Positions 1-9,560 of a stretch of DNA of 9,560 bases are shown piece by piece. The number at the start of each line of letters is the position of its first letter. Position 1 is the stretch's first letter. The notes under the pieces were generated by a model that searched no databases, was not told the DNA's origin, and saw nothing but the letters and a program-made list of their open reading frames with translations. Source of the stretch: Lachnospiraceae bacterium (GTDB lineage Bacteria > Bacillota > Clostridia > Lachnospirales > Lachnospiraceae); the NCBI GenBank assembly GCA_024694785.1, contig JAILJL010000063.1, forward strand, positions 1 through 9,560, read 5' to 3'. The position numbers and the translations under genes are program-made.

Positions 1-1287
1 AGTAGGTTCAAGCCTGTACCTGTTCAGCAATTCTCTGATCTTAGCCGAGAATTCCATCCTGTAGAAGTTAATTCTCGATATATTAATCGATATCGGAACT
101 ATCTTAACACCCTTGTCCAATTGTTCGCGTTGGAACCTGCATACTTCCTCACACACAAACAAATCCAATATCGCAACGAATCCGTTCTTCTCACACAAAG
201 GAACAAAGATACCCGGATTAATGGTTCCCTTAATCGGATGCTTCCACCTTATCAAAGCTTCCGCCGAGACCGTCTTGCCCGTCTTGGTATCTACGATTGG
301 TTGAAATACCACAAAAAACTGCTTATGATTAAGCGCCTGCTCCATCTCGATTACAAGTTCCTGCTCATTAAGGATATCTTCCTTAAGCTTCTCGCTATAG
401 TATGCGGATCTTATAAGATAACTATCCTTTATTGTCTGCAATGCCATATCGGCTCTGTCACACATAAGATATACTGGCATATCAGGATCGACAACCTCAT
501 ATATACCCATATGAAGCTGCAGGGTATAATCTATCGGGCTCGTGTGATCCTGCCCGGTTAAGATCCTCTCTATCTCAGGCATTATCTCATTAAGATATTT
601 CGTTGTCGTACAGAATACGAAGCTATCCGCTTCTGTTCTTGTACAGATGCCGTCATTTTTAATAAGATCTATAAGCTGATGAGCTATATTACGTAATACC
701 TGATCACCCAGCCTGCTGCCGAACAATTCGTTAACTACTTTAAATCGGTCTACGTTCCAGATCGCGATTGCGCATTTATCATCATGTGTCATAATGAATT
801 CACGCGCTTCTCTGTAAAATGTCTCTCTATTATATAATCCGGTCAATATGTCGCGTTGAGTTACGAACTTAAGCTCGTCTATCTGATGCGACATCTTAAA
901 CTGCGTATATATTACCTTATTAACCACATTTGAGACACGACGCCTTACAATTCGCTGATTATATGGCTTCGTAATGAAATCGTCCGCGCCAAGCTCTAAA
1001 GCTTCAACCTCATTATCTTCATCGAGCTCTTCGGAATTAACCACAATTGCAATGCTTTTAAATGCTTCATCTCTCTTGACCGCTCTCAAAAAATCAAATC
1101 CGTTCATCTTAGGCATGAAGATATCAAGAAGTATGATATCTATGCGAACCCCACTTCGTAATAACTTCAAGGCCTCATCGCCATCTCCCGCCTCGACTAT
1201 ATTGTACTCATTAAGAAATATACCGCGAAGTATCGCGCGATCGATTGCCCTGTCATCAACGATCATCATCGTAAGCATTTGTTCCAT
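1..1287 (-). CDS. Response regulator with receiver, degenerate GGDEF and EAL domains (c-di-GMP phosphodiesterase), 3' end outside window
   Basis: A cytoplasmic c-di-GMP signalling protein; 429 residues are visible and the frame is still open at base 1. Residues 1-120 form a receiver: acidic pair D11/D12, phospho-acceptor D55 in LLDIFMP, S85 at the switch position, and K107-P108. Residues about 140-290 form a GGDEF domain (RDILTGLYNR at 145-154), but its signature is EADSF (219-223), so cyclase activity should be lost. From about 305 an EAL domain begins, with SAEALIRWKHP (341-351) and INIS (401-404); the remaining metal and catalytic residues lie off the window. The likely role is phosphorylation-controlled hydrolysis of c-di-GMP, with the dead GGDEF possibly acting as a GTP sensor. 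The start is set by AAGGAG at 1295-1300, 7 nt before ATG. It sits 44 nt after larC2 with no clear terminator between, so co-transcription is likely. The domain assignment is firm; activity is inferred. Confidence 0.93.
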   Translation of the reverse strand, partial: MEQMLTMMIVDDRAIDRAILRGIFLNEYNIVEAGDGDEALKLLRSGVRIDIILLDIFMPKMNGFDFLRAVKRDEAFKSIAIVVNSEELDEDNEVEALELGADDFITKPYNQRIVRRRVSNVVNKVIYTQFKMSHQIDELKFVTQRDILTGLYNRETFYREAREFIMTHDDKCAIAIWNVDRFKVVNELFGSRLGDQVLRNIAHQLIDLIKNDGICTRTEADSFVFCTTTKYLNEIMPEIERILTGQDHTSPIDYTLQLHMGIYEVVDPDMPVYLMCDRADMALQTIKDSYLIRSAYYSEKLKEDILNEQELVIEMEQALNHKQFFVVFQPIVDTKTGKTVSAEALIRWKHPIKGTINPGIFVPLCEKNGFVAILDLFVCEEVCRFQREQLDKGVKIVPISINISRINFYRMEFSAKIRELLNRYRLEPT

Positions 1288-1331
1288 ATAATTACTCCTT
1301 ATATGACGTGCCATGCACTTACCGAGATTAA

Positions 1332-1793
1332 CTAACGCTTAATCTCACACTGTAGCTTCACTATATCAAATATCTCCTGGTATGTCTTATTGTGCTTCTC
1401 CGAGAGCGCTTTTACACTCTCATATTCAGGATAAAAGCGCGTCTTGCCGTTAGGTAACGTGCACACTTTGACCTGTACCTCACCAAGCGGTGTGGGTACC
1501 ATGACCTTCTCGCGTTTTAATATGTCACGTTCCCAGGCGGTCTTCCTTATACCGATTGTGGTCGTCTCAAGAAATATCAATTTCTCAAGTGCCTCCGCCT
1601 CTTCTTCATGACAGATAACCGAAAGCATGAACGCCGGCCGATTCTTCTTCATGAAGCAAGGCGTATAGCTTACATCAAGCGCACCTGCCTTAAGCAATCG
1701 CTCCATAGTAACGCCGAGAACTTCCGGAGACGCATCATCTATATTGGTCTCTAATTTAATCACGGTATCGTGTATGATATTCTCATTATTCAT
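1332..1793 (-). CDS. larC: LarC C-terminal domain (LarC2), nickel-pincer cofactor cyclometallase half
   Basis: This 153-residue protein matches only the C-terminal half of LarC (DUF111 / nickel-insertion family). Full LarC inserts nickel, with CTP hydrolysis, into the pyridinium-dithiocarboxylate nucleotide to give the NPN cofactor of lactate racemase (LarA). Visible family motifs are ETNIDDASPE (15-24), MKKNRPA (48-54), ETTTIGIR (76-83) and YPEYES (121-126). Usual LarC is about 400 residues, so the histidine-rich N-terminal LarC1 part is absent. In Lactobacillus the two halves are joined by programmed frameshifting, but here larB ends only 9 nt upstream, leaving no room for LarC1 in this operon. 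The ATG has AGGAG about 6 nt upstream, overlapping the larB stop codon, so the two genes are translationally linked. The family call is strong; whether the short form is functional alone, or pairs with a LarC1 encoded elsewhere, is unknown. Confidence 0.88.
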   Translation of the reverse strand: MNNENIIHDTVIKLETNIDDASPEVLGVTMERLLKAGALDVSYTPCFMKKNRPAFMLSVICHEEEAEALEKLIFLETTTIGIRKTAWERDILKREKVMVPTPLGEVQVKVCTLPNGKTRFYPEYESVKALSEKHNKTYQEIFDIVKLQCEIKR

Positions 1794-1802
1794 AGTATGC
1801 TC

Positions 1803-2534
1803 CTATTCTTCCTTCACTCTGCCAAGTACTGCAAGACGGTTAATCTGTGTCGCCATATAACCGGCACCGTATCCGTTATCAATATTTACAACCGCTATCC
1901 CATTAGCGCACGAATTAATCATTGTAAGCAACGCGGATAATCCGCCAAGATTGGCACCATATCCGACAGATGTCGGTACTGCTATAACCGGCTTATCGCT
2001 AAGGCCGCCAATCACGCTTGCAAGTGCTCCTTCCATACCTGCTATCGCGATAACCACGTTAGCTGCATTAATATCATCCACCCTTGAAAACAGACGATGA
2101 ATTCCGCTTACTCCCACGTCATATATTCTCGTAACCTTATTACCGAAGTATTCCGCGGTAAGAGCCGCTTCTTCGGCAACAAAAAGGTCCGCTGTTCCTG
2201 CGGTACAGATAGCGATATTACCTATCGGCTGCTTATTGGCTCTCGGGTCCTTATCATCAAGCTTAATCTGCAGGATACGTGATACCCTGTCATATTCCGC
2301 CTGCGGGAATTCCCTCCTTATAAGCTCTGCCTGATGCTCTGATGCTCTCGTTCCGAATACACAGCCATCATGCTCATAAAGTCTTTTATATATTTCTACC
2401 AGATGTTCATCATTTTTGCCCGCACAAAAAACGACCTCCGCAAAACCGGTGCGTCGCTTCCTGTCCGTGTCAAGCTTTGCAAAGCCCATCTCATCATATG
2501 TCTTTCCTGATACGTTAATTTCTTCCGTTGTCAT
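1803..2534 (-). CDS. larB: LarB, NaAD carboxylase/hydrolase of nickel-pincer cofactor synthesis
   Basis: LarB carboxylates the pyridinium ring of nicotinic acid adenine dinucleotide and cleaves off AMP, the first step of NPN cofactor synthesis; LarE then adds sulfur and LarC nickel. At 243 residues it is full length for the family. The N-terminal part carries VVFCAGK (34-40) and VFGTRASEHQ (59-68). The C-terminal half is a PurE/AIR-carboxylase-like domain with AGTADLFVAEEA (112-123), IAGMEGAL (164-171), PTSVGYG (187-193) and NIDNGYGAGYMA (217-228). C209 in NSCANGI is a candidate for the reactive cysteine known in LarB, although I could not align it. The ATG is preceded by a modest AAAAGG about 11 nt upstream. 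It is the first gene of the operon, behind a good promoter at 2605-2633. LarA and LarE are not in the window. Confidence 0.93.
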   Translation of the reverse strand: MTTEEINVSGKTYDEMGFAKLDTDRKRRTGFAEVVFCAGKNDEHLVEIYKRLYEHDGCVFGTRASEHQAELIRREFPQAEYDRVSRILQIKLDDKDPRANKQPIGNIAICTAGTADLFVAEEAALTAEYFGNKVTRIYDVGVSGIHRLFSRVDDINAANVVIAIAGMEGALASVIGGLSDKPVIAVPTSVGYGANLGGLSALLTMINSCANGIAVVNIDNGYGAGYMATQINRLAVLGRVKEE

Positions 2535-2639: not shown

Positions 2640-2843
2640 AAATATTGAATAAAGTGTGTTGCGTTACACATTATCTATACCTATGGTTTAAAAAAAATCC
2701 GATGTACTACATATGGTATGCTTTTTCGGCTTAAGCGCATAAAAATCCGCGAATTTTCAAAAATACAATCCGCGCAAATCCTTGAAAACACAAGGTTTTT
2801 TAAATGACCGTTACAGATTTTTCAAAAAATAACGGTAAACCAC
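2640..2843. other. AT-rich intergenic DNA between the divergent larB and RNA promoters
   Basis: No coding frame or known RNA is visible here. It contains A/T tracts, a weak hairpin CCTTG/CAAGG followed by six T (2780-2801, plus strand), and a perfect 7-bp inverted repeat, ACCGTTA (2807-2813) and TAACGGT (2830-2836), ending 7 bp before the -35 box of the RNA promoter. It most likely serves as upstream regulatory DNA for the RNA gene. Confidence 0.5.
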
Positions 2844-2872
2844 TTTACATTTATGTAAAACTTTTGTAAAAT
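2844..2872 (+). promoter_or_regulatory. Sigma-A promoter of the non-coding RNA
   Basis: TTTACA (2844-2849) and TAAAAT (2867-2872) are separated by exactly 17 nt, predicting a start near 2879-2880, where the first hairpin of the RNA begins. The -35 box lies within a perfect dyad, TTTACAT-TT-ATGTAAA (2844-2859), so a repressor or activator could act here. Confidence 0.75.
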
Positions 2873-2879
2873 ACTAACT

Positions 2880-3168
2880 GTAGAAAGTGATTGCTTTCTA
2901 CACCAGATTCGCTTCTTGACGGAGGGGAGTCGGAATTTGAATAATAGTCGTTGCTTATGCAACCTACCAGAGACCATTAGGAGAATGAAGATGAACCGAA
3001 ATTAAGATTCGCATCGCGTGTACCAGGCAATCCACGAGATTCCTGGCCTTCAGGTATCTGAAGATCTGGAGGCCGAGCGCAAAGTATCTTTGCGCTTATA
3101 ATTTAAGTGCTTGCTAACCCACAAGCACACGAATCTTATAAGATGAGAACTGCTTCTCATCTTTTTTT
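2880..3168 (+). ncRNA. Free-standing structured non-coding RNA of about 290 nt, class unassigned (raiA-type is one candidate)
   Basis: A complete RNA transcription unit with no long reading frame. It starts with a perfect 8-bp hairpin, GTAGAAAG/CTTTCTAC (2880-2901). A purine-rich segment GGAGGGGAG (2921-2929) and hairpin GTTGC/GCAAC (2950-2963) follow. A 9-bp long-range stem, TAAGATTCG (3003-3011) with CGAATCTTA (3130-3138), encloses four hairpins: CCAGG/CCTGG (3023-3046), CTTCAG/CTGAAG (3048-3063), AGCGCAAAG/CTTTGCGCT (3076-3096) and GTGCTTG/CAAGCAC (3107-3128). An intrinsic terminator closes it. Nothing on this strand follows until 7171, so it is not a leader of a neighbouring gene. It lacks the hallmarks I know for tmRNA, RNase P RNA, small SRP RNA and 6S RNA. 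Its size, isolation and Clostridia context would fit the raiA motif, but I cannot confirm that from memory. Confidence 0.78.
3141..3168 (+). terminator. Intrinsic terminator of the non-coding RNA
   Basis: Perfect 9-bp stem AGATGAGAA (3141-3149) and TTCTCATCT (3154-3162) with a CTGC loop. The last T of the stem begins a run of seven T (3162-3168). Read on the minus strand it lacks a T tract, so it acts in one direction only. Confidence 0.88.
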
Positions 3169-3172
3169 AATT

Positions 3173-3233
3173 CAGACAGGCATCTCGAAGTGACGGGGCC
3201 TGTCTGCCACGACGCACCTTACACCGCAGGTGC
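3173..3233. repeat. Two hairpins between the converging RNA and hpt genes
   Basis: CAGACAGGC (3173-3181) pairs with GCCTGTCTG (3198-3206) across a 16-nt loop, and GCACCT (3214-3219) pairs with AGGTGC (3228-3233) across an 8-nt loop. Neither is followed by a T tract on either strand, so they are not classical terminators. They could form the 3' end of the hpt transcript or act as barriers to convergent transcription. Confidence 0.5.
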
Positions 3234-3237
3234 ACTT

Positions 3238-3576
3238 CTATGCAGTAAGTCTTCGCACAAGCTCTCTTAATGTTTCGATATAATTCTCAAAGTCTTCTTT
3301 GATGTATGACACATTTTCTTCTCTTGCGGCAAATTCATGTAACCTCGAGTGCTCCGAGAAATTCTCCGCCCCGATTGTCTTCGCCGTAGTCTTAAGCGCA
3401 TGAGCTTCTACCACATAATTCTTCCAGTCTTCTGCGTTGAAGTATTTGGTAAGCATCGAGATACGCTCCTCGGAATCAGTAGCAAAATCCTGAATTATCT
3501 CATCATACAATTCTTCCATACCACCACAGAAATTAATTCCCACTTCTCTATCAACGATAAATTCCTGTTCATTCAT
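3238..3576 (-). CDS. Stand-alone Hpt (histidine phosphotransfer) domain protein
   Basis: A 112-residue cytoplasmic protein that is essentially one Hpt domain, the four-helix bundle that passes phosphate between receiver domains in a phosphorelay. The phospho-accepting site is H59 in VEAHALKTTAKTIGA (56-70), a close match to the family pattern AHxLKxxaxxxGa; helices rich in E/K/L follow. An upstream in-frame ATG at 3678 would add 34 residues, but that stretch crosses the ydjH terminator. The ATG at 3576 has GGAG 8 nt upstream and is preferred. No histidine kinase is adjacent; the only receiver in view is in the GGDEF-EAL protein at the left edge. It is separated from the ydj operon by a terminator and probably has its own promoter, with a dyad at 3593-3620. 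The domain call is firm; the partner is unknown. Confidence 0.88.
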   Translation of the reverse strand: MNEQEFIVDREVGINFCGGMEELYDEIIQDFATDSEERISMLTKYFNAEDWKNYVVEAHALKTTAKTIGAENFSEHSRLHEFAAREENVSYIKEDFENYIETLRELVRRLTA

Positions 3577-3714: not shown

Positions 3715-4530
3715 TTAAAATGATCCGTGACTGCCGCCATGACTTCTTCCGGATGAAGATGTATGTGTCGACGATCCGCCGGACGATGTCTGCTTCGGTC
3801 TGGCTCTCCTTGTTACCGATGCATAAAGGAATGTATCCTTACTCAGGCTAACGTTAATTGAATCAGGATCCACATAATTATTGGCGTCCGCCGCAAATCT
3901 TACGCTCTTTAACTGCTTCTTCAAATGCGCCGTATAGATAAGCGCCACAACAAGCCCCACTATAATAAACATAACGACGCCCGTACCCGGATTATAAGGC
4001 TCCTTCGGCGGTTCATAAATAACGCCTTCCTCATATGACGCCATTACCTGTTCAGCATGATCGACCAATGTCGAGAATGCCATATAATAATCGCCGGAAC
4101 TAAGATATGGCTTTACGTAGCTCATTATATAGTCCTGCGTCGCATCGGAATATGCTTCTATCGCCTTACCGCAAGTGCTTATCGCCCACTCGCGCTCTTC
4201 CATCGCGATAACAAATTCCATTCCGGTATAATCATCGCCGATACCATATTCCATCTGATCATAGATATCATCCGCAAAAGCAACGATATCGGTATAACCA
4301 TAATCAGCCATATTCTCTTCGGTAATGATTATAAGATCCATTCCGTATTTGTCTACAAGCGCATTAATTCTGTCCTGTAAGCTGCTTGCCTGTGATTCAG
4401 TCAGAAGATTGGCCAAATCCTGCATACGATAAGTCTCTTTCTCAGACTCCGCATGTACGGATACTGCATTTAATCCCATGGTCACTATAAGGAGTGCCAC
4501 GGTAATAATAGATAAAAGTGCTTTCTTCAT
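3715..4530 (-). CDS. ydjH: Secreted/membrane-anchored TPM-domain protein, YdjH-like
   Basis: A 271-residue TPM-domain protein (the YgcG/Psb32-type fold). Residues 1-27 are a signal peptide (MKK, hydrophobic core, VHA then E), so the TPM domain lies outside the membrane. That domain spans about 34-170: DLANLLTESQASSLQDRI near the start, YGMDLIIIT (62-70), and AMEEREWAISTCGKA (109-123). One membrane helix follows (about 183-201, VVMFIIVGLVVALIYTA). The inside tail ends in a low-complexity Ser/Gly/His segment (249-271), a feature common in TPM proteins. AAGGAGG is 7 nt before the ATG and only 15 nt separate it from the upstream gene, so the two are translated from one message. In B. subtilis the counterpart works with YdjG and YdjI in positioning PspA at the membrane. 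The biochemical activity of TPM domains is not settled. Confidence 0.82.
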   Translation of the reverse strand: MKKALLSIITVALLIVTMGLNAVSVHAESEKETYRMQDLANLLTESQASSLQDRINALVDKYGMDLIIITEENMADYGYTDIVAFADDIYDQMEYGIGDDYTGMEFVIAMEEREWAISTCGKAIEAYSDATQDYIMSYVKPYLSSGDYYMAFSTLVDHAEQVMASYEEGVIYEPPKEPYNPGTGVVMFIIVGLVVALIYTAHLKKQLKSVRFAADANNYVDPDSINVSLSKDTFLYASVTRRARPKQTSSGGSSTHTSSSGRSHGGSHGSF

Positions 4531-4545: not shown

Positions 4546-5631
4546 CTATATTAACCATATAAGATACGACAATGCCGCACCTATGATTCCCGCAATTGCG
4601 AATGATAATGCAAAGTACTTATTCTTAAGTCCCTTATCCATCGGAAGATCTCCGACGAACTTTCCGGTCTGTCCATTCATTGCAAACGTATAATTTGTTC
4701 CGTTGTATGTAGTATTAAGTATCCACACAGGTAGAAGCGCATACTTCGCATCGGCCCCCTCGACCTTAATGGATGAAGCCTCCGGTGTAACTGTTGAATA
4801 CTCCGTTACCGTATCCCTGAAAATCTCTTCAAGCGATCTCTTGGCGCGCTCATCCGCACGCTTAATCGTCTCTTCATCGGATACATCGTACTTATCTGCC
4901 AGGAATCCCGAGAGATAAGCCGTCTGGAAGTCTACTGCCTCGCTGTAATCAAACGGCTCAATAGATTCCATAAGATCGTCTGCCATCCTCTCAGAACCAT
5001 CAATCGGAATATTGTTAAACTTAACATCTCCGCCACGTACTACCGAGTATACGCTTGTCTCGGTATAATCATAATCACCGCTTGACCAGCATCTTAACTT
5101 GGTCGCCTTATATCTTACGATACCGCTTGCTTCAGTATTGAAAAGCCAGAACGGCACATATACACCTTTAATCTCATCAAGATGATTCTCATCCCTAAAG
5201 GTCTTAGGAAGAAGCTTCTTACCCTTATAATGCTCAAGCAGCTTCGCTTTGGCAGCCTTCTTATCGAGCTTAAACGGAATTACAAGATCAGGCTTAAGCA
5301 ATCCCTTGAACTGTTCCATCATAATAACGGGATTGCCGCAATAAGGACATGATGTCGCTCCCGTTGTCTCTTCTGCAATTATCTCGCCGCCGCAGGATTT
5401 GCAGACATAGCTTCTAAGTCCGGTCTCCTCATCAAGATTCCATTCTTCCTTATCACCAATATTCCAATTAGTATCATCTTCAGTATCATTCTGAAGGTCC
5501 TCGTCATATGCCTTAAGCGCTTCCATCTCGTATTCCGTATCACAGAACGGACACTTGCACTTCTGGAGGGTTGTATCGAATTCAACCTTACCGCCACAAC
5601 AAGGACACTTATATTCCTGTAAAGTAGACAT
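4546..5631 (-). CDS. ydjG: Double zinc-ribbon protein with C-terminal membrane anchor, YdjG-like
   Basis: A 361-residue protein starting with TFIIB-type zinc ribbons: C9-x2-C12 with C27-x2-C30 (CPCCGG and CPFCDTEYE), then C77-x2-C80 with C95-x2-C98 (CKSCGG and CPYCGN). An acidic linker (43-69) separates the two. The middle (105-335) is a conserved globular region with no motif I can assign to an enzyme, including VYVPFWLFNTEASG (157-170) and YALLPVWILNTTYNGTNY (297-314). One tail helix (about 338-359) ends at the C-terminus, so the protein should be tail-anchored with the ribbons in the cytosol. The start has AGGAG 7 nt upstream. It lies between the SPFH-like and TPM genes, the same gene trio as B. 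subtilis ydjGHI. Despite the ribbon name it is unlikely to be a transcription factor; it more likely links membrane and soluble partners. Confidence 0.82.
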   Translation of the reverse strand: MSTLQEYKCPCCGGKVEFDTTLQKCKCPFCDTEYEMEALKAYDEDLQNDTEDDTNWNIGDKEEWNLDEETGLRSYVCKSCGGEIIAEETTGATSCPYCGNPVIMMEQFKGLLKPDLVIPFKLDKKAAKAKLLEHYKGKKLLPKTFRDENHLDEIKGVYVPFWLFNTEASGIVRYKATKLRCWSSGDYDYTETSVYSVVRGGDVKFNNIPIDGSERMADDLMESIEPFDYSEAVDFQTAYLSGFLADKYDVSDEETIKRADERAKRSLEEIFRDTVTEYSTVTPEASSIKVEGADAKYALLPVWILNTTYNGTNYTFAMNGQTGKFVGDLPMDKGLKNKYFALSFAIAGIIGAALSYLIWLI

Positions 5632-7170: not shown

Positions 7171-8430
7171 ATGCCTGCACACAAGAAAAAAAATGTCATC
7201 GTCGGCCAGTCCGGCGGCCCTACTGCTGCCATCAATTCCTCGCTTGCCGGCGTATACAGAACCGCAAAAGACAGAGGATATAACAAAGTATACGGAATGA
7301 TCCATGGTATACAGGGACTTATCGAGGGAAGATATACAGACCTTTCCGAGCATATCCAGGATGGCCTCGATATCGAGCTTTTAAAAAGGACTCCTGCTGC
7401 ATACCTAGGCTCATGCAGATATAAATTACCGGAGATATGTGAGAACAAAGAATTATACGAGAAAATCTTCGATACACTTACCAAGCTCGAGATTGACTGC
7501 TTCATATACATTGGCGGCAACGATTCGATGGACACCATCAAGAAGTTATCCGATTATGCAATCGTTAACGGTTACGACATCCGCTTCGTAGGATGCCCGA
7601 AGACAATCGATAATGACCTTGCATTAACCGATCACACACCGGGTTACGGCTCCGCCGCCAAATATATCGCAGCATCGATAAAGGAAGTTATCCGTGACGG
7701 CTATTCTCTCGAAACCGACCACGGTCAGGTTATCATTATTGAAATCATGGGAAGAAACGCAGGCTGGCTTACCGCTGCCGCAGCGCTTTCAAAGTGTGAA
7801 GACTGCGACGGACCTGACGCAATCTATCTTCCCGAGATACCATTCGACTGCGATGCTTTTATCAAGAATGTGAAAAAGCTCCTTAAAGAGAAGGCTTTCG
7901 TAACCATCGCAGTATCAGAGGGACTTACCCTTGCTGACGGAAGATATGTAAACGAGCTTTCTAATGAAGTAGGCTATGTAGACGCTTTCGGTCATAAACA
8001 GCTTACAGGTACCGCAAGCTATCTCTGCCACCTTGTCGCAGAGAAATGCGGCTGCAAGACGCGTTCAATCGAGTTTTCAACCTTACAGCGTGCCGCAAGC
8101 CACCTGGCAAGCCGTATCGATATCATGGAAGCTTATAACGTAGGCGGTGCCGCAATGATGGCCGCCGATGAAGGCGATACAGGTAAGATGGTTGTAATCG
8201 TTCGTACATCCAACGATCCATACCAGTCAACAACAGAGGTTAAAGACGTTCACCGCATCGCTAACGACGAGAGACTCGTCCCGCGTGAGTGGATTACCAA
8301 GGATGGTACTTATGTAACCAACGAATTCATCCAGTATGCGAAGCCTCTTATCCAGGGCGAAGTTGCACCGATTATTGTAGACGGTCTTCCGAGACACCTC
8401 TACAAGCCGGGCTTCCACGATTTATTGTAA
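7171..8430 (+). CDS. pfp: 6-phosphofructokinase, probably pyrophosphate-dependent
   Basis: Phosphorylates fructose 6-phosphate to fructose 1,6-bisphosphate in glycolysis in the cytosol. PPi-dependent forms use pyrophosphate and work in both directions. The 419 residues exceed the roughly 320 of bacterial ATP-PFK and fit the longer PPi-type group. Motifs are GQSGGPTAAIN (12-22), IGGNDSMDT (114-122), PKTIDND (143-149) holding the catalytic aspartate D147, MGRNAGW (193-199), SEG (249-251) and TLQRAASH (304-311). Two positions separate donor classes: ATP enzymes read GGDG and PGTIDND, whereas here D118 replaces the second-motif glycine and K144 replaces G, both PPi-type. N117 stands where most enzymes have a metal-binding Asp, a variant worth noting. 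It is monocistronic, with its own promoter and a bidirectional terminator. The PFK fold is certain; PPi specificity is inferred. Confidence 0.93.
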   Translation: MPAHKKKNVIVGQSGGPTAAINSSLAGVYRTAKDRGYNKVYGMIHGIQGLIEGRYTDLSEHIQDGLDIELLKRTPAAYLGSCRYKLPEICENKELYEKIFDTLTKLEIDCFIYIGGNDSMDTIKKLSDYAIVNGYDIRFVGCPKTIDNDLALTDHTPGYGSAAKYIAASIKEVIRDGYSLETDHGQVIIIEIMGRNAGWLTAAAALSKCEDCDGPDAIYLPEIPFDCDAFIKNVKKLLKEKAFVTIAVSEGLTLADGRYVNELSNEVGYVDAFGHKQLTGTASYLCHLVAEKCGCKTRSIEFSTLQRAASHLASRIDIMEAYNVGGAAMMAADEGDTGKMVVIVRTSNDPYQSTTEVKDVHRIANDERLVPREWITKDGTYVTNEFIQYAKPLIQGEVAPIIVDGLPRHLYKPGFHDLL

Positions 8431-8500: not shown

Positions 8501-8539
8501 AAAAAGGGACGGTTCTCACAGAACCGTCCCCGCTTTTTT
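8501..8539. terminator. Bidirectional intrinsic terminator between pfp and the diguanylate cyclase gene
   Basis: Perfect 10-bp stem GGGACGGTTC (8506-8515) and GAACCGTCCC (8521-8530) with loop TCACA. On the plus strand six T follow (8534-8539); on the minus strand five T (8501-8505) follow directly. It serves both convergent genes, and the minus-strand stop codon lies at its edge (8538-8540). A smaller hairpin, TGCCGT/ACGGCA (8446-8460), precedes it without a T tract. Confidence 0.9.
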
Positions 8540-9560
8540 ATTCTGTATAAAATGCGCATCCGTTGCGCTGTTCTTTCATTCGATATAGTGTAAGGTCTGC
8601 ATGACGAAACATCGCATCGAAATTCTTCTCACGAGTACCGAAAACGACACCTGCACTGATTGATGCTTCCGGCAAACCATCTCTTGTATCATGCAACGCC
8701 AAGTTGACATTCTTAATTTTCTCTCTTATAAGACCCCTACTCTTCTTATCAGTATTGGTCATAAATATAAGGAATTCATCGCCACCGATTCTACAGATAT
8801 AATCTTCTGTACGGAATTCTCTCATTAAAGAATCTGCAAGCTTGATAAGAATCTTATCGCCAATCTCATGGCCCATGGTATCATTAATATTCTTGAACTT
8901 ATCGCAATCGATAAGTATCATTGCCGAAGCCTTAAAATTGATTGCATTTTTGATATAATCATATCCTGTTCTGTTATATAGGCCGGTTAAAGCATCATGC
9001 GTCGCCTCGAAGTTAAGATTCTCCAGGTTCTCCTTCTGAATCTCGTACATCCTGTTGTAAGTCCTTGCAAGTGACCTTAACTCACTTCCACCAATAACAT
9101 CAAGCGGCTTATCTTCAGTAATCCTCTTAACCGACTTATGCAGTGGATTTATGATAAGGATAATCGTAATCACTATTACAAGAAAGATTGTCAACAGGAG
9201 TAATCCGATCTCCCACATTAATATAAAAAGCGTGTCCTGCATACTTTCGCCGGATTCTATCTGTATACTGTGCGTCTCTTCTTCAAGATCCTCCGAGCAT
9301 TCCGACATGCGGTTCCTTATTACGGTCTTTTCTTTATAATAGAAATTGTCGTGCACCATTTCCTGGGCACGTTTAAGCTTCTTTTCACCGCTTCTGTTAA
9401 TATCTTCATCCGAAAGAACAACATCTGCAAGTTCCTCCGGGTATTCTGTTATATTACAAGCAACAAGTACAAGCTTCATCGCATAGTATTCACGCTCCAT
9501 AAGCTTCATTGATGCATTATATGCAAGTTGTAATTGTTGAAAGGCCCTCGTGTCTCCTGC
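8538..9560 (-). CDS. Membrane-anchored diguanylate cyclase with GGDEF domain, 5' end outside window
   Basis: Makes c-di-GMP from two GTP at the inner face of the membrane. The frame stays open to the window edge: 17 residues (AGDTRAFQQLQLAYNAS) precede the first internal Met at 9509. That Met has no clear ribosome site, so the true start and probably a first membrane helix lie beyond the edge. Counting from that Met, residues 1-90 look like the end of an extracytoplasmic helical sensor domain. A membrane helix spans about 93-121, then a short linker or HAMP-like segment (122-165). The GGDEF domain covers about 168-323: THDALTGLYNRTGYDYI, LIDCDKFKNINDTMGHEIGD (199-218), and an intact RIGGDEF (240-246). 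RTED (233-236), five residues before GGDEF, is the RxxD inhibitory site, implying product feedback. The ligand sensed cannot be told. Confidence 0.92.
   Translation of the reverse strand, partial: AGDTRAFQQLQLAYNASMKLMEREYYAMKLVLVACNITEYPEELADVVLSDEDINRSGEKKLKRAQEMVHDNFYYKEKTVIRNRMSECSEDLEEETHSIQIESGESMQDTLFILMWEIGLLLLTIFLVIVITIILIINPLHKSVKRITEDKPLDVIGGSELRSLARTYNRMYEIQKENLENLNFEATHDALTGLYNRTGYDYIKNAINFKASAMILIDCDKFKNINDTMGHEIGDKILIKLADSLMREFRTEDYICRIGGDEFLIFMTNTDKKSRGLIREKIKNVNLALHDTRDGLPEASISAGVVFGTREKNFDAMFRHADLTLYRMKEQRNGCAFYTE

What the first reader, a model, noticed from the sequence alone, without database searches (positions are those of the whole stretch)
2844..3168. Complete, isolated, strongly structured RNA gene of unassigned class
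Seen: a sigma-A promoter with ideal 17-nt spacing, a first hairpin starting at the predicted +1, a 9-bp long-range stem enclosing four hairpins, and a terminator with seven T. No protein gene follows on that strand for about 4 kb. Inference: a dedicated non-coding RNA, not a cis-regulatory leader. Known: Clostridia carry several poorly understood large RNAs of this size, including the raiA motif, but I cannot match the conserved core from memory.
Basis: partly seen in the sequence, partly recalled or inferred. Interest (0 to 1): 0.8.

Follow-up and report, generated by a model that had tools for sequence, protein, structure and literature searches.

The report
Orphan folded RNA of rumen bacteria
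This stretch holds a roughly 290-letter RNA gene, likely transcribed on its own, whose promoter and core are kept in four related gut bacteria (likely rumen Lachnospiraceae) while the DNA around it has drifted, which matches no family in the Rfam library, and which would likely work by folding and binding a still unknown partner.

Summary
Window 2844-3168 has a promoter (TTTACA-17-TAAAAT), a strongly folding ~290-nt body (z -6.65) and a terminator with seven T; the next + strand ORF with family support is at 7171. No Rfam family matches. Homologs occur in 3 of 6 other genomes of the genus; none was found elsewhere in what I searched. Promoter identity is 97-100% and RNA 79-86% in two of them, flanks 31-65%. 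A 29-nt core is identical in the three and differs at one base in the window. P3, P4 and the terminator show compensatory changes. In the fourth species the unit, promoter included, lies on the other strand relative to the same neighbours, so it is a gene of its own, not a conserved leader of larB or hpt. No reading frame is kept; raiA and 6S models do not match; Hfq was found in 0 of 7 genomes of the genus; GGA sites are not enriched. Best reading: a narrowly distributed, independently transcribed structured RNA, likely acting in trans through its near-invariant core. Transcription, fold and partner are untested.

The parts
2844..2872 (+). promoter: TTTACA, 17 nt, TAAAAT; contains the near-palindrome TTTACATTTATGTAAA (2844-2859)
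   Evidence: once in each of 4 carriers, 0 of 3 non-carriers of the genus; 97% and 100% identical over 2844-2877 in G001 and G003
2879..2902 (+). P1, 5' hairpin (10 bp) at the predicted start of transcription, loop GATT; G004 has an 85-nt insertion on the 5' side of this loop
   Evidence: 37 of 40 cells paired over 4 sequences, no compensatory change; insertion read
2903..2933 (+). P2 hairpin
   Evidence: 30 of 30 cells paired in 3 sequences, one-sided changes only; G004 left out of the count
2933..2950 (+). core strand A (GAWTTTGAATAATAGTCG)
   Evidence: 17 of 18 columns invariant over 4 sequences
2950..2963 (+). P3 hairpin; much longer in G004
   Evidence: compensatory changes in 4 of 5 pairs on the hand alignment, in 2 pairs of this stem on the MAFFT alignment
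2963..2991 (+). core strand B (CCTACCAGAGRCCATTAGGAGAATGAAGA); predicted to pair in part with strand A
   Evidence: 28 of 29 columns invariant over 4 sequences; the helix varies too little for covariation to speak
3027..3032 (+). GCAATC, candidate pseudoknot partner of the P1 loop GATTGC (2889-2894, its last two bases shared with the P1 stem)
   Evidence: first 5 pairs standard in 4 of 4, two of them kept as wobbles in G003; sixth broken in G003; chance control 12-39%, so suggestive only
3045..3074 (+). P4 hairpin (11-bp stem GGCCTTCAGGT / ATCTGGAGGCC)
   Evidence: 44 of 44 cells paired, 1 compensatory and 2 one-sided changes; a stem this long kept in all four arises in 0 of 500 column shuffles
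3075..3097 (+). P5 hairpin, position kept while the sequence has diverged
   Evidence: hairpin in 4 of 4 folds; z -6.1, -3.0, -2.8, -1.7 against mononucleotide shuffles
3107..3128 (+). P6 hairpin, stem GTGCTTG/CAAGCAC invariant
   Evidence: 28 of 28 cells, no variation
3140..3168 (+). P7, intrinsic terminator with seven T
   Evidence: 36 of 36 cells, 1 compensatory change
1803..2534 (-). neighbour: larB (orientation reference, not part of the RNA)
3238..3573 (-). neighbour: small Hpt-domain protein, converging on the RNA (orientation reference)

Best explanation
Window 2844-3168 carries a likely independent non-coding RNA gene of about 290 nt that is predicted to fold around a near-invariant core and would act in trans by binding a protein or other partner, in the manner of raiA/ModT. 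Shown by sequence: promoter, body and terminator conserved together; two near-invariant core strands; compensatory changes in peripheral helices; no reading frame kept; orientation flipped relative to the same neighbours in one species. Inferred: that it is transcribed from about 2879 to 3168; that core strands A and B come together in one irregular helix next to P3; that the peripheral helices (P1, P3, P4 loop, P5) are length-variable struts; that the P1 loop and GCAATC at 3027 close a pseudoknot; that the core is a binding site rather than a base-pairing seed. The partner is unknown; no Hfq was found, so an Hfq-type sRNA mechanism is the less likely one.
For: Homologs in 3 of 6 other genomes of the genus. 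Identity to the window in G001 / G003: promoter 97 / 100%, RNA 86 / 79%, flanks 31-65%. Core strand B identical in the 3 homologs, one base different in the window. On the core alignment 97.3% of cells pair (shuffled 94.6%) and 3 pairs change on both sides (shuffled 0.7), each reached by 7 of 500 shuffles; whole-molecule table; the 11-bp P4 stem is longer than any in 500 column shuffles (longest 9). Fold z-scores -7.2, -6.0, -3.8, -5.3 for the four RNAs (100 dinucleotide shuffles each). Same promoter-RNA-terminator unit on the opposite strand relative to TPM, hpt and larB in G004. No frame kept in the four. No Hfq in 7 of 7 genomes, control ringing in 5 of 14. The core reads as a sense Shine-Dalgarno-like string, not the anti-Shine-Dalgarno string of a common sRNA seed (inference).
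Against: Only 4 sequences, 3 of them close, so covariation is thin: the number of further pair types is no higher than in shuffles (320 of 500 reach it), and counting all stems of 5 or more pairs with two or more variable pairs gives 4 against 2.1 expected, reached by 18% of column shuffles. The central core helix hardly varies and cannot be tested. The pseudoknot is within chance. RNAfold's global folds of the four differ. No transcript, probing or genetic data. Invariant partly unpaired stretches are equally what a base-pairing sRNA would show. The narrow range gives no sign of a general function.
Confidence: 0.5

Rival explanations
1. A trans-acting base-pairing sRNA: the invariant stretches (CUACCAGAG, AGGAGAAUGAAGA) would be seeds that pair with target mRNAs without Hfq.
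For: Conserved, partly unpaired strands (unpaired probabilities); own promoter and terminator; Gram-positive sRNAs can act without Hfq (general knowledge).
Against: Near-complements of one 15-base piece of the core (1 mismatch allowed) gave 5 places besides the RNA itself in 4 genomes, with no DNA similarity between those places; several conserved helices and 6 pairs with compensatory change (hand alignment) exceed what a seed needs. Only one piece of the core was tried.
Confidence: 0.25
2. A regulatory leader (attenuator or riboswitch) of larB, as its position in G004 would allow.
For: In G004 the RNA lies on the larB strand and its terminator ends about 75 nt before the likely larB start.
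Against: In G000, G001 and G003 the RNA points away from larB and runs towards the 3' end of hpt on the other strand; the promoter pattern and a terminator of nearly the same sequence occur in all four.
Confidence: 0.04
3. A sponge for CsrA or another GGA-binding translational repressor, mimicking a ribosome-binding site (AUUAGGAGAAUG).
For: CsrA is encoded in 3 of the 4 carriers (G000, G003, G004; not found in G001, 62% complete); one AGGA is invariant.
Against: GGA is not enriched in any of the four RNAs (p 0.3-0.7 by dinucleotide shuffle); only one GGA is kept in 4 of 4 (read); CsrA also occurs in G002 and G006, where no such RNA was found.
Confidence: 0.07
4. A far-diverged member of a known housekeeping or orphan class (raiA/ModT, 6S, SRP, RNase P, tmRNA).
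For: Size and style (own promoter, conserved loops) resemble raiA; no raiA was found in 60 relatives including the 7 of the genus (but no control genome rang, so absence is not shown).
Against: No Rfam family at gathering threshold; at E up to 5 (window) only 5 weak hits far below their cut-offs, none of these classes, and none at E up to 1 in 3 homologs; no tRNA/tmRNA; a 6S over the cut-off lies elsewhere in G003 and G004 (none found in the incomplete G000 and G001).
Confidence: 0.06
5. A short coding transcript (AGGAG at 2979-2983, ATG at 2985-2987, or a GTG start near 3018).
For: AGGAG and ATGAAG are invariant; frames from a GTG at the matching place reach 51 aa in G003 and 54 aa in G004.
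Against: AGGAG sits 1 nt from that ATG; its frame has 6, 4, 4 and 8 codons and only the first two residues are common to all four (read). The GTG frames are 27, 13, 51 and 54 aa: G001 and G004 read one frame, the window and G003 another, because of a 2-nt indel.
Confidence: 0.03

Closest known systems
raiA motif RNA / ModT (RF03072)
   Same: Standalone, structured RNA of Bacillota with highly conserved unpaired nucleotides and pseudoknots in its core (PMC11751092, passages; PMC11706538, abstract and passages); ModT acts in trans.
   Different: No covariance-model match; raiA of C. acetobutylicum is 210 nt and the class is known from over 2,500 species, this one is 291-425 nt and found in 4; pseudoknot here only suggested.
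6S RNA (RF00013)
   Same: Independent RNA gene, present in the same genus.
   Different: Different fold (several hairpins, not one rod; recalled); no match; G003 and G004 have a 6S elsewhere.
ROOL / GOLLD / OLE large ornate RNAs
   Same: Orphan structured RNAs; ROOL stands for Rumen-Originating, Ornate, Large (PMC12286853, search listing).
   Different: Much larger and with Rfam models (both recalled); nothing in Rfam matches here.
Hfq-independent base-pairing sRNAs of Firmicutes
   Same: Own promoter and terminator, intergenic (recalled).
   Different: Those keep a short seed (recalled); here several helices and two core strands are kept. Not excluded.

Membership tests
raiA motif RNA (RF03072) | scores above the gathering cut-off of the raiA covariance model | tested here: not met
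   cmscan: no raiA hit at gathering or at E up to 5 in the window, nor at E up to 1 in 3 homologs; genome search RF03072 0 of 60 (none of the control genomes rang)
raiA motif RNA (RF03072) | loop pseudoknots in the core | tested here: inconclusive
   GATTG x CAATC pairs in 4 of 4, but chance gives this in 12-39% of column shuffles
raiA motif RNA (RF03072) | acts in trans on growth transition via c-di-GMP | not testable with these tools
   needs genetics; known for ModT from PMC11706538 (abstract, passages)
6S RNA (RF00013) | scores above gathering | tested here: not met
   no match in the RNA; 6S found elsewhere in 5 of 7 genomes, among them G003 and G004
tmRNA / tRNA | ARAGORN or Rfam match | tested here: not met
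Hfq-dependent sRNA | Hfq in the genome | tested here: not met
   0 of 7 genomes of the genus, control rings in 5 of 14
CsrB-type CsrA sponge | many conserved GGA motifs in hairpin loops | tested here: not met
   no enrichment; one GGA kept in 4 of 4 (read)
cis-regulatory leader | same strand and upstream of a conserved downstream gene | tested here: not met
   holds for larB only in G004, opposite in G000, G001, G003
independent structured ncRNA gene | own promoter and terminator, conserved structure, no conserved frame | tested here: met
independent structured ncRNA gene | a discrete transcript | not testable with these tools
   no expression data at hand

The most novel reading that the evidence does not exclude
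A founding member of a new class of compact, pseudoknotted RNAs with a near-invariant core: a raiA-like trans-acting RNA machine that arose in, or survives only in, one genus of rumen Lachnospiraceae, travels as a self-contained promoter-RNA-terminator unit that can be inverted in place, and serves a partner still to be found.
Probability: 0.35. Interest if true: 0.65.

Novelty: new member of a known kind. Interest (0 to 1): 0.45.

Why it matters
An orphan structured RNA, raiA, turned out to steer growth transitions (PMC11706538, abstract), yet such classes are mostly found when common enough for cross-phylum screens (general knowledge). This one was found in 4 species only, with a promoter among the best-kept sequence of the locus. 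If real in the cell, it would show that narrowly distributed genera carry their own elaborate RNAs; the four sequences are enough to seed a family model and to test the core by probing and mutation.

Tried and rejected
Weak DNA hits: 46 of 60 genomes matched at E up to 1, but only G000, G001, G003 and G004 have a match below 1e-6 (next genome 0.006). Around four of the weak ones (G000 contig 134, G005 contigs 27 and 28, G006 contig 20) core strand B is absent at up to 9 mismatches; the other weak hits were not looked at one by one. Weak model hits: G079 (31 bits, at the start of a uvrA-like ORF), G036, G032, G005, G029 (16-21 bits) and G379 (24.6 bits) likewise lack strand B. Viral contigs (exact 21-mer), plasmids and phages (blastn): no match. 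Promoter palindrome as a regulon marker: besides the RNA itself only 2 places with 2 mismatches in the own genome, and 1 for the reversed control, so no regulon seen. Antisense targets of one core piece: no shared place. Flanking inverted repeats that could explain the flip: only a 16-nt 81% pair in G003 and a 12-nt A/T-rich pair in G001 lie on both sides of the unit or its end, neither shared, and none in the window or G004. A CsrA sponge, a peptide, a larB leader, 6S and raiA were considered and set aside as told above.

Literature: two topic searches (15 of 20 papers listed, 10 of 26 listed) and three on raiA; no listed title or abstract start describes such an RNA.

Full report
What is there. 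On the + strand the window has TTTACA-17-TAAAAT at 2844-2872, a 10-bp hairpin from 2879, a chain of hairpins, and a terminator stem at 3140-3163 with seven T ending at 3168. The 290-nt stretch folds at -102.2 kcal/mol against -69.4 +/- 4.9 for shuffles (z -6.65); its reverse complement also folds well (z -6.06), so strand is set by promoter and terminator only. A promoter-like match alone is worth nothing here (26 found, 22.7 expected). Neighbours: larC2 1332-1793 (-), larB 1803-2534 (-), an Hpt-domain protein 3238-3573 (-), a TPM-domain protein 3715-4530 (-); the next + strand ORF with family support is a phosphofructokinase at 7171, and five + strand ORFs before it have no Pfam match.

Known families. 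No Rfam family reaches its gathering score in the window; at E up to 5 the stretch 2700-3400 gives 5 weak hits of unrelated families, far below their cut-offs; three homologs give none at E up to 1. ARAGORN finds no tRNA or tmRNA.

Homologs. A DNA search of 60 relatives gives E 1.5e-84 in G001, 8.7e-56 in G003 and 4.5e-7 in G004, all of the same genus; the next genome has 0.006. An exact 21-base core pattern in the collection of 84,980 species genomes hits 3 records, whose contig lengths equal those of G001, G003 and G004; they are titled Lachnospiraceae MAGs RGIG8260 (water buffalo rumen), Tb.RUG.265 and RGIG2939 (goat omasum). The 29-base core with up to 3 mismatches is in 1 of 397 genomes of the family, the own one (G001 to G006 were not in that draw). 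A covariance model of the core, R1, finds in 97 relatives the four it was built from (126-175 bits) and five others at 16-31 bits, and in 397 family genomes the own one and one at 24.6 bits; these six weak hits lack core strand B at up to 9 mismatches. The genome searches use a loose first look and strict filters, so a far-diverged homolog could be missed. In G002, G005 and G006 larB sits beside a full-length larC, no Hpt- or TPM-like ORF is among those listed around it, and core strand B is not found there.

Conservation against background. In a three-way alignment of the larB-hpt intergenic region, identity to the window in G001 / G003 is 64 / 64% for 2535-2699, 65 / 56% for 2700-2843, 97 / 100% for the promoter 2844-2877, 86 / 79% for the RNA and 40 / 31% for 3169-3240. 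The 29-base promoter pattern occurs exactly once in each of the four carriers and in none of the three others.

Orientation. In G004 the order is TPM, hpt, RNA, larB, larC2, all on one strand; in the window and G003 the genes are in the same order but the RNA lies on the opposite strand, and so it does in G001, where no TPM ORF was listed before the contig's end (the G003 Hpt match, 23.0 bits, is just under its cut-off). Promoter and terminator went with it. A role as leader of larB, or as antisense partner of hpt, can therefore hardly be the conserved function. No shared inverted repeat that would mediate the flip was found. All four are draft assemblies.

Structure. On the core alignment (4 sequences) 97.3% of cells pair (shuffled 94.6%) and 3 pairs have changes on both sides (shuffled 0.7), each reached by 7 of 500 shuffles; the number of further pair types is not above shuffles (320 of 500 reach it); sliding the partners by 1-3 columns lowers pairing to 33-59%. 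By hand alignment: P3 20 of 20 cells with 4 compensatory pairs, P4 44 of 44 with 1, terminator 36 of 36 with 1, P6 28 of 28 without variation, P2 30 of 30 in 3 sequences, P1 37 of 40 without compensatory change; the hand alignment was made by fitting stems, so it leans towards pairing. Over all ungapped columns, stems of 5 or more pairs with two or more variable pairs number 4 against 2.1 in column shuffles, reached by 18%; but the 11-bp P4 stem exceeds the longest of 500 shuffles (9). P5 is a hairpin in all four with diverged sequence; z -6.1, -3.0, -2.8 and -1.7. Core strands A (2933-2950) and B (2963-2991) can form an irregular helix around P3; one pair varies U-G to U-A and one is broken in the window, the rest is invariant and untestable. 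The invariant P1 loop GATTG can pair with CAATC at 3028-3032 in all four, G003 keeping it through two wobbles; column shuffles give as much for this loop in 12% (with two variable columns) to 39% (any) of trials. This is a lead, not a result. RNAfold's own global folds of the four differ.

Not a protein. The frame at the AGGAG-ATG string has 6, 4, 4 and 8 codons (read). Frames from a GTG at a matching place are 27, 13, 51 and 54 aa, but a 2-nt indel puts G001 and G004 in one frame and the window and G003 in another.

Mechanism. What is kept most is the promoter, two core strands, P6 and the terminator stem; what varies are helix lengths. That is the style of structured RNAs that bind a partner through a core held by variable struts (inference), as in raiA (8 conserved helices and two pseudoknots in cryo-EM, PMC11751092, passages; in C. 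difficile ModT acts in trans and changes c-di-GMP, PMC11706538, abstract and passages). Hfq is not found in 7 of 7 genomes; CsrA is present in G000, G003 and G004 but also in G002 and G006, where the RNA was not found, and GGA is not enriched. A base-pairing sRNA remains the main rival; one 15-base piece of the core gave no shared antisense place. A 6S lies elsewhere in G003 and G004; none was found in the incomplete G000 and G001. raiA was not found in 60 relatives, but no control genome rang, so its absence is not shown.

Verdict. A conserved, independently organised, narrowly distributed RNA gene outside the Rfam families tested; kind known, family new as far as these searches go. Transcription and function untested.

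Noticed in passing
window 1332-1793: The gene after larB encodes only the LarC2 part (profile positions 237-374 of 375); G004 has the same, while G002, G005 and G006 have full-length LarC beside larB. LarC1 was not looked for elsewhere.
   Followed up: partly
window 2640-2700: Between larB and the RNA promoter two short blocks (AAAGTGTGTT and TATCTATACCTATGG) are kept in G000, G001 and G003 over drifting sequence; perhaps a regulator site of larB.
   Followed up: no
window 2905-2911 and 3005-3011: AGATTCG occurs twice in the RNA (also in G001 and G003); in the window either copy could pair with CGAATCT at 3130-3136, just before the terminator, which would allow a switch; the partner is not kept in G001 and G003.
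   Followed up: partly
L033 843-927: In G004 the P1 hairpin carries an 85-nt insertion that RNAfold gives hairpins of its own.
   Followed up: no
window 1-1314, 3238-3573, 8538-9509: A response regulator with GGDEF and EAL, an Hpt protein and a GGDEF protein lie around the RNA; ModT in C. difficile works partly through c-di-GMP (PMC11706538, passages), but nothing here links them.
   Followed up: no
window 8505-8531: An 11-12-bp terminator-like hairpin with T runs on both strands lies between the converging phosphofructokinase and GGDEF genes.
   Followed up: no
window 4546-5631: A 361-aa protein without a Pfam hit, with CxxC zinc-ribbon-like motifs near its start and, by eye, a hydrophobic C-terminus.
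   Followed up: no
L048 2300 (G008): Core strand A with 3 mismatches, without strand B; probably chance.
   Followed up: no
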